This document shows positions 10,291 through 56,015 of a stretch of DNA of 64,000 nt, piece by piece. Both the position numbers and the translations under genes were made by a program. The notes under the pieces were generated by a model. The model did no database searches, was not told the origin of the DNA, and was given only the letters and a program-made list of their open reading frames with translations. Source of the stretch: Hyphomicrobiales bacterium (GTDB lineage: Bacteria > Pseudomonadota > Alphaproteobacteria > Rhizobiales > Beijerinckiaceae); assembly GCA_930633495.1 (NCBI GenBank), contig CAKNFJ010000001.1:496001-560000 (forward strand), read 5' to 3'. Position 1 is the first letter of the stretch. Each line of letters opens with the position of its first letter.

Positions 10291-10926
10291 ATGAACGGCG
10301 CACCGCGCATCGCGCTCTTCATCGACGGCGCCAATCTTTACGCGACCTCGAAGCAGCTCGGCTTCGACATGGATTATCGCCGCCTGCTGCGCGAATTCCA
10401 GAGCCGCGGAAATCTGATCCGCGCCTTCTATTTCACGACACTGGTCGAGAGCGAGGAGTATTCGTCCATCCGCCCGCTGGTCGATTGGCTCGACTATAAC
10501 GGCTACCGCGTCGTCACCAAGGCCGCGAAGGAATTCACCGACGCCACCGGCCGCCGCCGGGTCAAGGGCAACATGGATATCGAGCTCGCCATCGAGATGC
10601 TCGAACTCGCCCCCCATCTCGACCAGATCTACCTGTTCTCCGGCGACGGTGATTTCCGCCCGCTGGTCGAGGCGGTGCAGCGCAAGGGCGTCAAGCTCTC
10701 GGTCGTCTCGACGATCTCGACCAATCCGCCGATGGTTTCGGACGAGCTGCGCCGGCAATGCGACGAGTTCGTCGACCTCGCCCAGCTGATGCAGAAGATC
10801 GGACGCGATCCGTCGGAGCGCACAAGCCGCGCAGGCAGCGCGCCCGCCGCTCCGGCAACGCCGGGCAACCCGGCGCTGGAGCGCCGCTACGGCATCCGCC
10901 AGGGCGACGAGCCGGTGGAGGGATGA
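10291..10926 (+). CDS. NYN domain-containing protein (LabA/DUF88-like)
   Basis: A 211-residue protein whose first 170 residues form a NYN (PIN-like) domain, the fold of single-strand ribonucleases. Acidic motifs expected of the catalytic site are present: LFIDGANLYA near residue 9, GNMDIELAIEM near 93 and LFSGDGDFRPLVE near 113. The C-terminal 35 residues are Ala/Pro-rich and probably disordered. NYN/LabA proteins are widespread in alphaproteobacteria and their RNA targets are mostly unknown. The gene has its own upstream region and ends next to the family A repeat element. Confidence 0.88.
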   Translation: MNGAPRIALFIDGANLYATSKQLGFDMDYRRLLREFQSRGNLIRAFYFTTLVESEEYSSIRPLVDWLDYNGYRVVTKAAKEFTDATGRRRVKGNMDIELAIEMLELAPHLDQIYLFSGDGDFRPLVEAVQRKGVKLSVVSTISTNPPMVSDELRRQCDEFVDLAQLMQKIGRDPSERTSRAGSAPAAPATPGNPALERRYGIRQGDEPVEG

Positions 10927-10948
10927 GCTCCACGGTAGGGCGTAGAGC

Positions 10949-10998
10949 GCGAGGAACCCCTCTCCTGTAAGGAGAGGGGCAGGTGTGAGGTGTAGGCC
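10949..10998. repeat. Left terminal inverted repeat of the DUF559 element (family A copy 1)
   Basis: A 50-bp end containing an internal hairpin (ACCCCTCTCC / GGAGAGGGG, loop TGTAA) followed by CAGGTGTGAGGTGTAGGCC. It matches the reverse complement of 11405-11454 at 47 of 50 positions. It also matches the left ends of copies at 37865 and 55857. Confidence 0.9.
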
Positions 10999-11046
10999 GC
11001 CGGACCAGCGGAACTGTGCCTTCGCCGAGCCGAACTTCCCAGCCAA

Positions 11047-11388
11047 TCAAATAGCTTCGGCAGCAGCACGAATTTTCGCGACGACCGCGTCGCGATCATT
11101 CAGCACCTCTTCATTGCGGAACCGGATCAGCACGAAGCCATGGCTTTCGATCTCAACGGATCTAGCGGCATCGTAATCGCGATCTGCGAGGTGCTGGTTC
11201 CCATCGATCTCGATGGCAAGCTTCCGCTCGAAGCAGAGGAAATCAACGGTATAGGCTAGAAGCGGCGCCTGCCGGCGGAATTTGAGACCATTAATCCGAC
11301 GATTTCTGACGAGCTCCCAGAGAATGTCCTCGGGCTTCGTCGCCTGGCGCCGCAGCTTTCGAGCGAAGTCCTGCGGCTCCGACACCAT
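11047..11388 (-). CDS. DUF559 domain protein, PD-(D/E)XK nuclease-like (Vsr-related)
   Basis: A compact protein of about 113 residues of the DUF559 family, related to very-short-patch-repair endonucleases. Family hallmarks are KPEDILWELVRNRRING, KFRRQAPLLAYTVDFLCF and the putative catalytic DFLCFERKLAIEIDGNQH, giving a D...E-x-D arrangement. RFRNEEVLNDRDAVV follows near the C-terminus. The ATG at 11388 has an AGGA site six bases upstream; an ATG two codons earlier and a GTG at 11418 inside the terminal repeat are alternatives. The whole gene lies between inverted repeats and is the only gene in the element. Biochemical activity is unproven for most of the family. Confidence 0.85.
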   Translation of the reverse strand: MVSEPQDFARKLRRQATKPEDILWELVRNRRINGLKFRRQAPLLAYTVDFLCFERKLAIEIDGNQHLADRDYDAARSVEIESHGFVLIRFRNEEVLNDRDAVVAKIRAAAEAI

Positions 11389-11404
11389 CGCCATTCCTGC
11401 TGAG

Positions 11405-11454
11405 GGCCGACACCTCACCCCTGCCCCTCTCCTTACAGGAGAGGGGTTCCCCGC
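11405..11454. repeat. Right terminal inverted repeat of the DUF559 element
   Basis: Reverse complement of the left end with three mismatches in 50 bases. It contains the same hairpin. The DUF559 frame could begin inside it at a GTG (11418), so the repeat may also supply part of the gene's 5' region. Confidence 0.9.
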
Positions 11455-11478
11455 ACTCTTTCTTTCAACCTCGTGAAT

Positions 11479-11952
11479 TCAACCGCCCGTCTTCAGAATC
11501 CGCTGCTTGTCGCGGTTCCAGTCGCGGGTCTTCTCGGTCTCGCGCTTGTCGTGGAGCTTCTTGCCCTTGCCGAGGCCGAGCTCGACCTTCGCGCGGCCCC
11601 TGTCGTTGAAATAGACCTTGAGCGGGATCAGAGCCATGCCCTCGCGCTGGACCGCGCCCATCAGCTTGTTGATCTCGCGTCGATGGAGCAGGAGCTTGCG
11701 CGGCCGGCGAACCTCGTGATTGAAGCGGTTCGCCTCCAGGTACTCCGGGATATAGGCGTTGAACAGGAAGAGCTCCTCACCCATCGGGCCGGCATAGCTC
11801 TCGCCGATCGTCGCCTTGCCGCCGCGCAACGATTTGATCTCGGTGCCCTGCAAGGCGATGCCCGCCTCCAGTGTCTCCTTGATCTCGTAATTGAAGCGCG
11901 CCTTGCGGTTGTCCGCCGCGAGACGATAGCGCTCGGGATCGGGTTTCTTCAT
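11479..11952 (-). CDS. smpB: SsrA-binding protein SmpB
   Basis: Binds tmRNA and delivers it to stalled ribosomes for trans-translation. The 157-residue product has the core [22 protein letters not shown] with [14 protein letters not shown], and a basic C-terminal tail [20 protein letters not shown] of the type that enters the mRNA channel. Its start codon overlaps the stop of the upstream PaiB-like gene by four bases (ATGA), so the two are probably translationally coupled. dapA lies further upstream on the same strand, a common alphaproteobacterial neighbour. Confidence 0.97.
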
Positions 11953-37864: not shown

Positions 37865-38024
37865 GCGGGGAACCCCTCTCCTGTAAGGAGAGGGGCAGGG
37901 GCGAGGTGTCGGCCGTTGGATCAGTAGAGCACTGGCTTCACCGCAGCCGCGGTCAGGCCACAGCCTAAGCGTCCAACGGCCTACCCCTCACCCTGCCCTC
38001 TCCCTCCGGGAGAGGGTTCCCCGC
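37865..38024. mobile_element. 160-bp family A element without a gene (MITE-like)
   Basis: The left 50 bp (37865-37914) match the reverse complement of the right end of the DUF559 element at 49 of 50 positions. The right end (37978-38024) is a related inverted repeat with its own hairpin (CCCTCTCCC / GGGAGAGGG). The centre has an inner inverted repeat GGCCGTTGGA / TCCAACGGCC and a CACCGCAGCCGCGGT core. It lies between convergent adh and aldh genes. It looks like an internally deleted derivative of the DUF559 element. Confidence 0.75.
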
Positions 38025-55856: not shown

Positions 55857-56015
55857 GCGGGGAACCCCTCTCTTGTAAGGAGAGGGGCAGGGGTGAGGTG
55901 TAGGCCCCTTTACAAATTCGTTCTGGCCTCACCGCAGCAGCGGTTAGCGTGCGACTGCAACTTCCAGCGACCTACCCCTCACCCTGCCCTCTCCCTTCGG
56001 GAGAGGGTTCCCCGC
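55857..56015. mobile_element. 159-bp family A element without a gene (MITE-like)
   Basis: The left 50 bp differ from the DUF559-element ends at two or three positions (one being CTCTCTTGTAAGG). The right end (55969-56015) matches that of the 160-bp copy at 37865-38024. The cores also align (TGGCCTCACCGCAGCAGCGGTTAG here). It lies between convergent lysC and the RND gene. Confidence 0.75.

What the first reader, a model, noticed from the sequence alone, without database searches (positions are those of the whole stretch)
10949..11454. A DUF559 nuclease-like gene enclosed by 50-bp inverted repeats: a possible minimal mobile element
The ends 10949-10998 and 11405-11454 match as inverted repeats at 47 of 50 positions and each contains its own hairpin. 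Only one gene lies between them, a PD-(D/E)XK-like DUF559 protein of about 113 residues related to Vsr endonucleases. Two further copies in the window (37865-38024 and 55857-56015) keep the same left end but lack the gene. This is the autonomous/non-autonomous pattern seen with transposons and MITEs, and with REP elements and RAYT enzymes, but here the only candidate enzyme is a DUF559 protein. A DUF559 nuclease that spreads or maintains hairpin-ended repeats would be a new kind of element. Movement itself is inferred.
Basis: partly seen in the sequence, partly recalled or inferred. Interest (0 to 1): 0.8.

Follow-up and report, generated by a model that had tools for sequence, protein, structure and literature searches.

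The report
Nuclease partner of triplex-hairpin DNA repeats
A small repair-like nuclease gene (DUF559) sits between hairpin repeats that could fold into a DNA triplex, and this pairing recurs in many bacterial groups, which suggests that the nuclease is the missing partner of a widespread but unexplained class of bacterial repeats.

Summary
In detail: 47 of 50 positions match, the enclosed gene is DUF559, and the two other window copies lack it. It is not a local oddity. In the genus, 67 of 79 testable DUF559 loci lie between matching repeats (control windows 7 of 2025), and 78 of 79 have a hairpin-plus-mirror motif within 350 nt (controls 24 of 790; ParE genes 0 of 29). The motif is the published intrastrand-triplex repeat BoxC/PIT/TM, around which a 2015 survey found no mobility function. 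E. coli ycjD and the solved structure NGO0050 are DUF559 genes beside such repeats. Repeat type follows nuclease clade, and A- and C-type repeats are commoner where the same nuclease type is present. Gene-less copies are mostly ~160-bp inverted pairs; empty, filled and swapped orthologous sites exist. No RAYT-family transposase was detected in 61 of 67 genomes. After NGO0050 the closest solved structure is homing endonuclease I-Bth0305I. Best reading: DUF559 is the cognate nuclease of a REPIN/RAYT-like system with unrelated parts. The partnership is well supported; that the nuclease cuts and moves the repeats is inferred, loci share ancestry, and target duplications were not resolved.

The parts
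10944..10998 (+). Left end, type A triplex motif: Y-arm/R-arm hairpin 10957-10979, linker 10980-10981, mirror (third-strand) segment 10982-10990 (one base off the type consensus), inner tail
   Evidence: hairpin folded
11405..11459 (-). Right end, inverted copy of the left end, also type A: hairpin 11424-11446, mirror segment 11413-11421
11047..11388 (-). DUF559 (PF04480) PD-(D/E)XK / Vsr-like nuclease gene, 113 aa from ATG; an upstream in-frame GTG at 11418 would give 123 aa and start inside the right repeat
   Evidence: residues invariant in the 33-row alignment (numbered from the GTG) include E30, D59, E70, D72, H76; dN/dS median 0.15 over 14 family pairs
37865..38024 (+). Gene-less type A unit: left hairpin plus inverted, slightly different right hairpin
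   Evidence: folds as single strand with z -7.6 over 37869-38018
55857..56015 (+). Gene-less type A unit; present at the orthologous site in G060; no motif in the 15 other orthologous spacers that could be spanned, one of which (G007) holds a degenerate remnant by eye
10291..10926 (+). NYN-domain gene, left neighbour of the insertion site
11479..11952 (-). smpB, right neighbour; by eye, many relatives with NYN next to smpB have a short spacer without the element

Best explanation
DUF559 is the cognate nuclease of the BoxC/PIT intrastrand-triplex repeats. One or a few nuclease genes per genome, each enclosed by its own repeat type, recognise the folded end (hairpin plus mirror-image purine strand) and cut or nick DNA there. 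This spreads and maintains both the gene-bearing element and a population of ~160-bp gene-less inverted pairs. It works like REPIN/RAYT, with a Vsr/homing-endonuclease fold in place of the HUH transposase. Shown: the enclosure, its breadth, the match of repeat type to nuclease clade, type-specific repeat abundance, insertion polymorphism, fold and purifying selection. Inferred: recognition of the folded end, the cleavage, and the route of re-insertion (processing of single-stranded DNA at forks, or breaks repaired from another copy).
For: Genus: repeat pair on both sides of 67 of 79 DUF559 loci vs 7 of 2025 local windows; triplex motif within 350 nt 78 of 79, both sides 54 of 79, controls 24 and 0 of 790. 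Gene-centred controls: SmpB 3 of 30, two of these being the DUF559 sites themselves; ParE toxin 0 of 29. Pseudomonadota, 30 best loci: motif 29, both sides 13, controls 10 and 2 of 120. About ten phyla (labels from record titles): repeat pair 39 of 75 vs 17 of 1337 windows. Repeat type on the nuclease tree: 8 changes, least possible 6, shuffled mean 49.8. A repeats: median 17.5 with A-type nuclease (14 genomes) vs 3 without (53), p 2.5e-6; C repeats 16.5 (16) vs 1 (51), p 4e-7; other types not associated except D with C repeats, p 0.04. 396 Pseudomonadota genomes: motif with strong DUF559 (E < 1e-10) 75, motif without 21, DUF559 only 54, neither 246; counting weak matches too, 80, 16, 85, 215. 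Mobility: related B elements at three sites of one contig; one site without motif in 20 of 25 loci, B+gene, gene-less A or gene-less C in the rest. Of 28 fetched places other than the window element's ends, 23 have the right partner, unit 138-166 nt. Fold: 3hrl, then homing endonuclease I-Bth0305I. E. coli ycjD has the motif beside it.
Against: No cleavage, binding or movement was observed. No target-site duplication could be established. The genus loci are not independent: they fall into 18 site groups, the three largest holding 52 of 81 loci, so part of the clade-type match is joint inheritance. Phylogeny-corrected tests go the same way (A 4.0 vs 0.2 pairs, C 5.1 vs 0.0) but their median p is 0.125 and 0.0625. 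Of 22 genomes with 10 or more A repeats, 10 have no A-type nuclease; of 17 with as many C repeats, 6 have no C-type; G056 has 28 A repeats and no DUF559, G224 69 motifs and none. 24 of 79 genus loci have the motif on one side only. In the Pseudomonadota set the stricter repeat-pair test gives only 14 of 30 (controls 4 inverted and 9 direct of 240), and 36 of 75 cross-phylum loci have no pair; candidate-phylum loci 1 of 6. The plasmid DUF559 genes of Thermoactinomyces and P. aeruginosa had neither. The mirror segment is perfect in 25 of 75 hairpins, above controls but not universal. Published in vivo footprinting did not support stable triplex (PMC4666352, Discussion).
Confidence: 0.62

Rival explanations
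1. Homing into repeats: the DUF559 gene is a selfish homing gene that cuts its own repeat type and is copied into gene-less pairs by gene conversion; the repeats themselves spread by other means.
For: The second-closest solved structure is the homing endonuclease I-Bth0305I. Gene-bearing B and gene-less A elements occupy the same position between the same outer GCGCGGGGAA ends, by eye, in different genomes. Type-specific abundance is also expected if the gene settles where its repeats are many.
Against: No other mover was found: no Y1_Tnp match in 61 of 67 genomes. The window element has two ends of the first type while gene-less units have two different ends, so insertion of a gene into a standard unit does not explain the anatomy directly. 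The 113-aa protein has no room for the DNA-binding extension described for EDxHD enzymes (PMC3943268, passages).
Confidence: 0.2
2. Host repair enzyme: DUF559 is a Vsr-like mismatch or structure-specific nuclease whose gene lies among repeats by self-regulation or because it was once carried by them; it does not move them.
For: Caulobacter VsrA is a DUF559 protein on which an SOS response depends when methylation is lost, and is proposed to be a mismatch-repair enzyme (PMC12907096, passages). Purifying selection. Several sites are conserved across the genus.
Against: Patchy presence (49 of 67 genomes, 0-5 matches each), several repeat types that follow nuclease clades, and type-specific repeat abundance are not expected of a general repair enzyme.
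Confidence: 0.1
3. The repeats are moved by an ordinary transposase (RAYT or other) and DUF559 is a passenger.
For: The pairs resemble REPINs.
Against: No Y1_Tnp match in the own genome and in 61 of 67 genus genomes; the six Y1_Tnp loci fetched (of nine matches) have no triplex motif beside them. Other transposase families were not searched.
Confidence: 0.05
4. Independent hairpin insertions or terminators that happen to flank small genes.
For: Intergenic hot spots exist: one spacer holds three different repeat types in different genomes.
Against: Controls: ParE 0 of 29, SmpB 3 of 30, windows 0 of 790 both sides. PIT elements showed no terminator activity (as cited in PMC4666352).
Confidence: 0.03

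Closest known systems
BoxC / PIT / TM_ECO intrastrand-triplex repeats (PMC4666352: abstract, Introduction part 1, two results sections, Discussion part 1 read)
   Same: Y-arm, loop, R-arm, short linker, mirror third strand; intergenic; two motif types, in some cases in inverted pairs; in more than 260 genomes
   Different: That paper reports no associated mobility function; here a specific nuclease gene is enclosed by or next to them
REPIN / RAYT (PMC8049555 passages; PMC8266576 abstract and outline)
   Same: Paired inverted palindromes as gene-less population; few cognate enzyme genes; repeats commoner in genomes with the enzyme; enzyme-repeat co-evolution
   Different: Enzyme is PD-(D/E)XK Vsr/homing-like, not HUH Y1; ends are purine-mirror hairpins
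EDxHD homing endonuclease I-Bth0305I (3r3p; PMC3943268 passages)
   Same: Catalytic-domain fold; selfish nuclease
   Different: No intron or intein seen and no DNA-binding extension; flanked by hairpin repeats
Vsr, and the Vsr-like VsrA of Caulobacter (PMC12907096 passages)
   Same: DUF559 domain (VsrA); Vsr-like fold, though E. coli Vsr ranks only tenth in the fold search
   Different: Proposed role is mismatch repair; repeats as partners not mentioned in the passages seen
NGO0050 (3hrl)
   Same: Solved DUF559 structure; 101 of 102 aligned residues identical to the protein of L208, whose locus is flanked by this kind of repeat
   Different: Deposited as endonuclease-like; no function given in the listing

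Membership tests
BoxC/PIT/TM repeats | Hairpin with purine arm followed by its mirror image (class II triplex) | tested here: met
   Genus types by inspection. Wider sets: 75 of 110 loci had a perfect 8-bp hairpin with room; mirror perfect in 25 vs 5% with swapped arms, 0.6% shuffled, 5 of 75 on the 5' side
BoxC/PIT/TM repeats | Inverted pairs of two slightly different motif types | tested here: met
   23 of 28 places (30 fetched, 2 of them the window element's own ends; L022 and L030 are two ends of one unit) have the second-type end in inverted orientation
BoxC/PIT/TM repeats | Folds as triplex in vitro | not testable with these tools
   Only hairpin folding computed
REPIN/RAYT | Cognate enzyme is a Y1 HUH transposase (PF01797) | tested here: not met
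   Own genome no match; 6 of 67 genus genomes with a match
REPIN/RAYT | Enzyme gene enclosed by its cognate repeats | tested here: met
   67 of 79; clade-type match
REPIN/RAYT | Repeats commoner where the cognate enzyme is present | tested here: met
   phylogeny-corrected trend only
REPIN/RAYT | GTAG tag beside the palindrome | not tested
   not scored
IS/MITE with DDE transposase | Target-site duplication | tested here: inconclusive
   Filled/empty pairs give at most 3-4 ambiguous bases by eye
IS/MITE with DDE transposase | Transposase gene between the inverted repeats | tested here: not met
   DUF559 is the only recognisable gene between the ends; the other ORFs listed there are mechanical and were not searched
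EDxHD homing endonucleases | Catalytic fold | tested here: met
   3r3p Foldseek E 1.8e-5; profile E 8.8e-4
EDxHD homing endonucleases | Extended DNA-binding region | tested here: not met
   113 aa; Pfam finds only DUF559 above its cut-off
EDxHD homing endonucleases | Cuts the uninterrupted site | not testable with these tools
   needs biochemistry
PD-(D/E)XK / Vsr-like nucleases | Fold and conserved acidic residues | tested here: met
   1vsr at rank 10, Foldseek probability 1.00, E 0.044; E30, D59, E70, D72, H76 invariant in 33 rows; published YcjD-Vsr profile match (PMC1189080 passages)

The most novel reading that the evidence does not exclude
A class of bacterial mobile element in which a stand-alone Vsr/homing-type PD-(D/E)XK nuclease recognises purine-mirror (triplex-capable) hairpins and copies itself and a population of gene-less repeat pairs. 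It would be the enzyme behind BoxC/PIT/TM repeats across about ten phyla, converging on the REPIN/RAYT design with no part in common.
Probability: 0.55. Interest if true: 0.93.

Novelty: categorically new. Interest (0 to 1): 0.88.

Why it matters
Intrastrand-triplex repeats were noted in E. coli in the 1990s and found in more than 260 genomes by 2015, when a survey reported no mobility function around them and no settled role (PMC4666352). A specific nuclease partner makes their origin testable at once, starting with E. coli ycjD. It would give a second persistent repeat population in bacteria beside REPINs, which PMC8049555 calls the only one known to its authors, assign a biology to DUF559, and supply a solved structure (3hrl) whose substrate can now be guessed.

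Tried and rejected
Chance or local composition: rejected by shuffles and window controls. RAYT as mover: not supported in this genus. Target duplication: looked for in 52 filled/empty gaps among the fetched loci and at three orthologous sites; junctions differ too much, so none is claimed. Motif finder with 7-nt arms: background too high in Bacteroidota (189 of 537 control windows), so only the repeat-pair score is used across phyla. In the recount one locus fell below the threshold once masked bases were left out, and another left the count because a flank was under 150 nt, so 40 of 76 became 39 of 75; the control windows were not rescored. Four of 80 cross-phylum loci and one of 30 ParE loci lay too near a contig end. 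In the genus, 81 of the 89 matches were analysed; 8 partial or weak matches were left out, among them G063:C1:3415756, and 2 more lacked flank. The 30 phylum loci and 80 cross-phylum loci are the best-scoring ones, not random draws. 15 of the 43 plasmid-collection records with a match were opened. Site grouping (18 groups) may chain neighbouring sites. Coordinates and counts were typed from earlier outputs. The tree-corrected test with 30 genomes was repeated with all 67. The repeat-pair test was set after seeing only the two loci of the own genome; repeat types; the motif finder, so only the cross-phylum, plasmid, SmpB and ParE sets are blind to it.

Full report
OBSERVATION. The window lies in an unnamed 5.94-Mb genome (G000, contig C1:496001-560000). 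Between an NYN-domain gene and smpB sits a 516-bp element, 10944-11459. The only recognisable gene between them is DUF559, PF04480, E 1.9e-37, 113 residues from its ATG (11047-11388). The hairpin core is not expected by chance. The genome has at least 45 places matching the left end but only two DUF559 matches.

SECOND GENE, SECOND REPEAT. The other DUF559 gene of the genome lies between genes that look by eye like murC and murB (not tested) and is enclosed by a different hairpin repeat, CCTTCTCCCC-TCG-GGGGAGAAGG. That led to the general question.

ENCLOSURE IS THE RULE IN THE GENUS. DUF559 occurs in 49 of 67 genomes, with 0-5 matches each. I fetched regions around 81 of 89 matches (plus the window). 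Of the 79 with enough flank, 67 have a matching repeat on both sides (local alignment score 20 or more; 55 inverted, 29 direct, some both), against 7 of 2025 windows of equal shape in the same regions. A finder for the shared architecture gives 78 of 79 with a motif within 350 nt and 54 of 79 on both sides; controls 24 and 0 of 790. Gene-centred controls are SmpB 3 of 30, two of which are the DUF559 sites themselves, and ParE toxin, a small accessory gene, 0 of 29. These loci are not independent: they fall into 18 site groups, the three largest holding 52 of 81.

WHAT THE REPEAT IS. The types seen in the genus share one plan: pyrimidine arm, loop, purine arm, short linker, then the mirror image of the purine arm, often with one A replaced by T (inspection). 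Type A is CCCCTCTCC-TGTAA-GGAGAGGGG-CA-GGGGTGAGG; type C has a second hairpin in the linker. That is the arrangement of an intrastrand purine-motif triplex. In 75 hairpins taken one per locus from 110 loci of wider sets (35 had no perfect 8-bp hairpin with room), the mirror is perfect in 25, against 5% with arms swapped between loci, 0.6% with shuffled tails and 5 of 75 on the other side. The literature knows such repeats as BoxC, PIT and TM_ECO (PMC4666352: abstract, Introduction part 1, two results sections and Discussion part 1 read). That paper reports 23 in MG1655, five inverted pairs that always join two motif types, and occurrence in more than 260 genomes, and says that activities providing genetic mobility were never found around them. 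Words beginning with nuclease or DUF, and Vsr and YcjD, do not occur in its main text.

BREADTH. Among the 30 best-scoring loci of a Pseudomonadota sample, 29 have the motif within 350 nt and 13 on both sides (controls 10 and 2 of 120); the stricter repeat-pair test gives 14 of 30 (controls 4 inverted and 9 direct of 240). In 80 named loci from other groups the repeat-pair test gives 39 of 75 against 17 of 1337 windows. Groups, named from record titles, counts: Cyanobacteriota 4 of 5, Chloroflexota 5 of 9, Bacteroidota 10 of 30 (controls 5 of 537), Alphaproteobacteria 8 of 11, Planctomycetota 2 of 2, Nitrospirota 1 of 1, Myxococcota 1 of 1; candidate-phylum loci only 1 of 6. Sequences are shown. 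In 15 loci opened from the plasmid collection, 13 have a motif or a repeat pair; Thermoactinomyces and P. aeruginosa do not. Three Deinococcus species carry the gene inside an hpa catabolic cluster between inverted ends, cleanest in L209. E. coli MG1655 ycjD is annotated DUF559 and has a BoxC-type motif on its 3' side. The gonococcal locus L208 is flanked too, and its protein is identical to the solved structure 3hrl at 101 of 102 aligned residues.

COGNATE PAIRING. On a tree of 81 nucleases the repeat type changes 8 times (least possible 6; shuffled mean 49.8), partly by joint inheritance at conserved sites. A-type and C-type repeats were counted in all 67 genomes. A repeats are more numerous where an A-type nuclease exists (median 17.5 in 14 genomes, 3 in 53 others, p 2.5e-6), not where B, C, D or E types exist. 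C repeats follow C-type nuclease (16.5 in 16, 1 in 51, p 4e-7), with a weak link to D (p 0.04) and none to A, B or E. Ten of 22 genomes with 10 or more A repeats, and 6 of 17 with as many C repeats, lack the cognate type. Correcting for relatedness, independent pairs go the cognate way 4.0 to 0.2 (A) and 5.1 to 0.0 (C), while other pairings are mixed; median p is 0.125 and 0.0625. Across 396 Pseudomonadota genomes one common motif pattern co-occurs with strong DUF559 matches (E below 1e-10): 75 both, 21 motif only, 54 DUF559 only, 246 neither (80, 16, 85, 215 with weak matches counted); the reversed control pattern shows no hit in the table. The direction of cause is not settled by these counts.

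MOBILITY. Of 30 fetched A-type places in the genome, 2 are the ends of the window element; 23 of the other 28 (L022 and L030 are two ends of one unit) have the second-type right end, unit length 138-166 nt, all but one 155-166. The window element has two first-type ends. At the window site many relatives have a short NYN-smpB spacer without the element; one (G028) has the element with the gene reversed, another (G001) a single-hairpin remnant (by eye). Genome G063 has related B elements at three sites of one contig (dS 0.22 and 0.49 in two pairs). At one of these sites 20 of 25 loci have no motif, G063 and G049 hold B plus gene, G052 and G006 a gene-less A pair, G032 a gene-less C pair; in G049 the right flank lies about 1.35 kb further on. 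The window copy at 55857 is shared with G060; the 15 other orthologous spacers that could be spanned have no motif, though G007 has a degenerate remnant by eye. Target duplications could not be resolved.

ENZYME. The model (mean pLDDT 83) matches 3hrl, then the catalytic domain of homing endonuclease I-Bth0305I; PvuRts1I-type restriction enzymes and mitochondrial-ribosome chains follow, and E. coli Vsr stands at rank 10, E 0.044. A profile search gives 3hrl, I-Bth0305I and PvuRts1I; the profile match of YcjD to Vsr is published (PMC1189080, passages). Invariant residues in 33 family members include E30, D59, E70, D72 and H76. dN/dS is 0.07-0.35, median 0.15, over 14 pairs. A Caulobacter DUF559 protein, VsrA, is needed for the DNA-damage response seen when a cytosine methylase is missing (PMC12907096, passages only), consistent with DNA cutting in vivo. 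No Y1 transposase was detected in 61 of 67 genomes.

MECHANISM. Most likely the nuclease binds the folded end and cuts at its foot when it is exposed as single strand or cruciform. In 35 of 48 A-D loci with motifs on both sides the nearest hairpins lie outermost with mirror segments inward, but only 6 of 12 for type A, and 0 of 5 for type E. Re-insertion or copying by host repair then spreads pairs bounded by such ends. In its minimum-energy fold the gene-less pair forms one structure with its two tails paired, which could release it as a unit. Homing-like exchange between pairs that share outer ends can explain the swap at one orthologous site. Recognition, cutting and re-insertion are inference.

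NOVELTY. Searches of the open-access library gave 14 papers for DUF559, 8 for YcjD, 4 for COG2852, 19 for intrastrand triplex, 3 for BoxC with palindromes and BIME and none joining repetitive extragenic palindromic, Vsr and endonuclease. In these listings and in the parts of papers opened I saw no link between DUF559 and the repeats; most listed papers were not read and most subscription journals are not held. The system works like REPIN/RAYT but fails its defining enzyme test, has no recognisable DDE transposase, and lacks the DNA-binding part of EDxHD homing enzymes, so I file it under none of them.

Noticed in passing
L025 (G000:C1:965767) and L073, L080, L106, L129: A different palindromic repeat sits inside the loop of the triplex hairpin, splitting it (by eye); the loops may be insertion targets.
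   Followed up: no
G010:C1:816298-817909 (L063): A dense array of type A hairpins, mostly in alternating orientation, around a DUF559 gene, like a BIME cluster.
   Followed up: no
L120, L127, L130 and similar type C/D loci: The 3' end of the DUF559 reading frame runs into the right repeat, so the repeat supplies the C-terminal residues.
   Followed up: no
L142 6758-6802: A perfect 17-bp inverted repeat containing TGAGGTGA lies just upstream of E. coli ycjD; it is not a BoxC motif.
   Followed up: no
L102 right end: One B-type copy of G063 lacks its right repeat; the adjoining sequence looks by eye like a mutator-type transposase gene, not tested.
   Followed up: no
several of L248-L262 at the site orthologous to window 55857: Relatives that lack the triplex pair often carry another palindromic repeat family in the same spacer (by eye).
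   Followed up: no
L209, L210, L217: Three Deinococcus species carry DUF559 in opposite orientation within the hpa catabolic cluster; the genes next to it differ between them.
   Followed up: partly
L203, L204, L205, L207: Cyanobacterial plasmid DUF559 genes near DUF1156, PglX or BREX-type genes; in L207 the domain is part of a very long protein.
   Followed up: no
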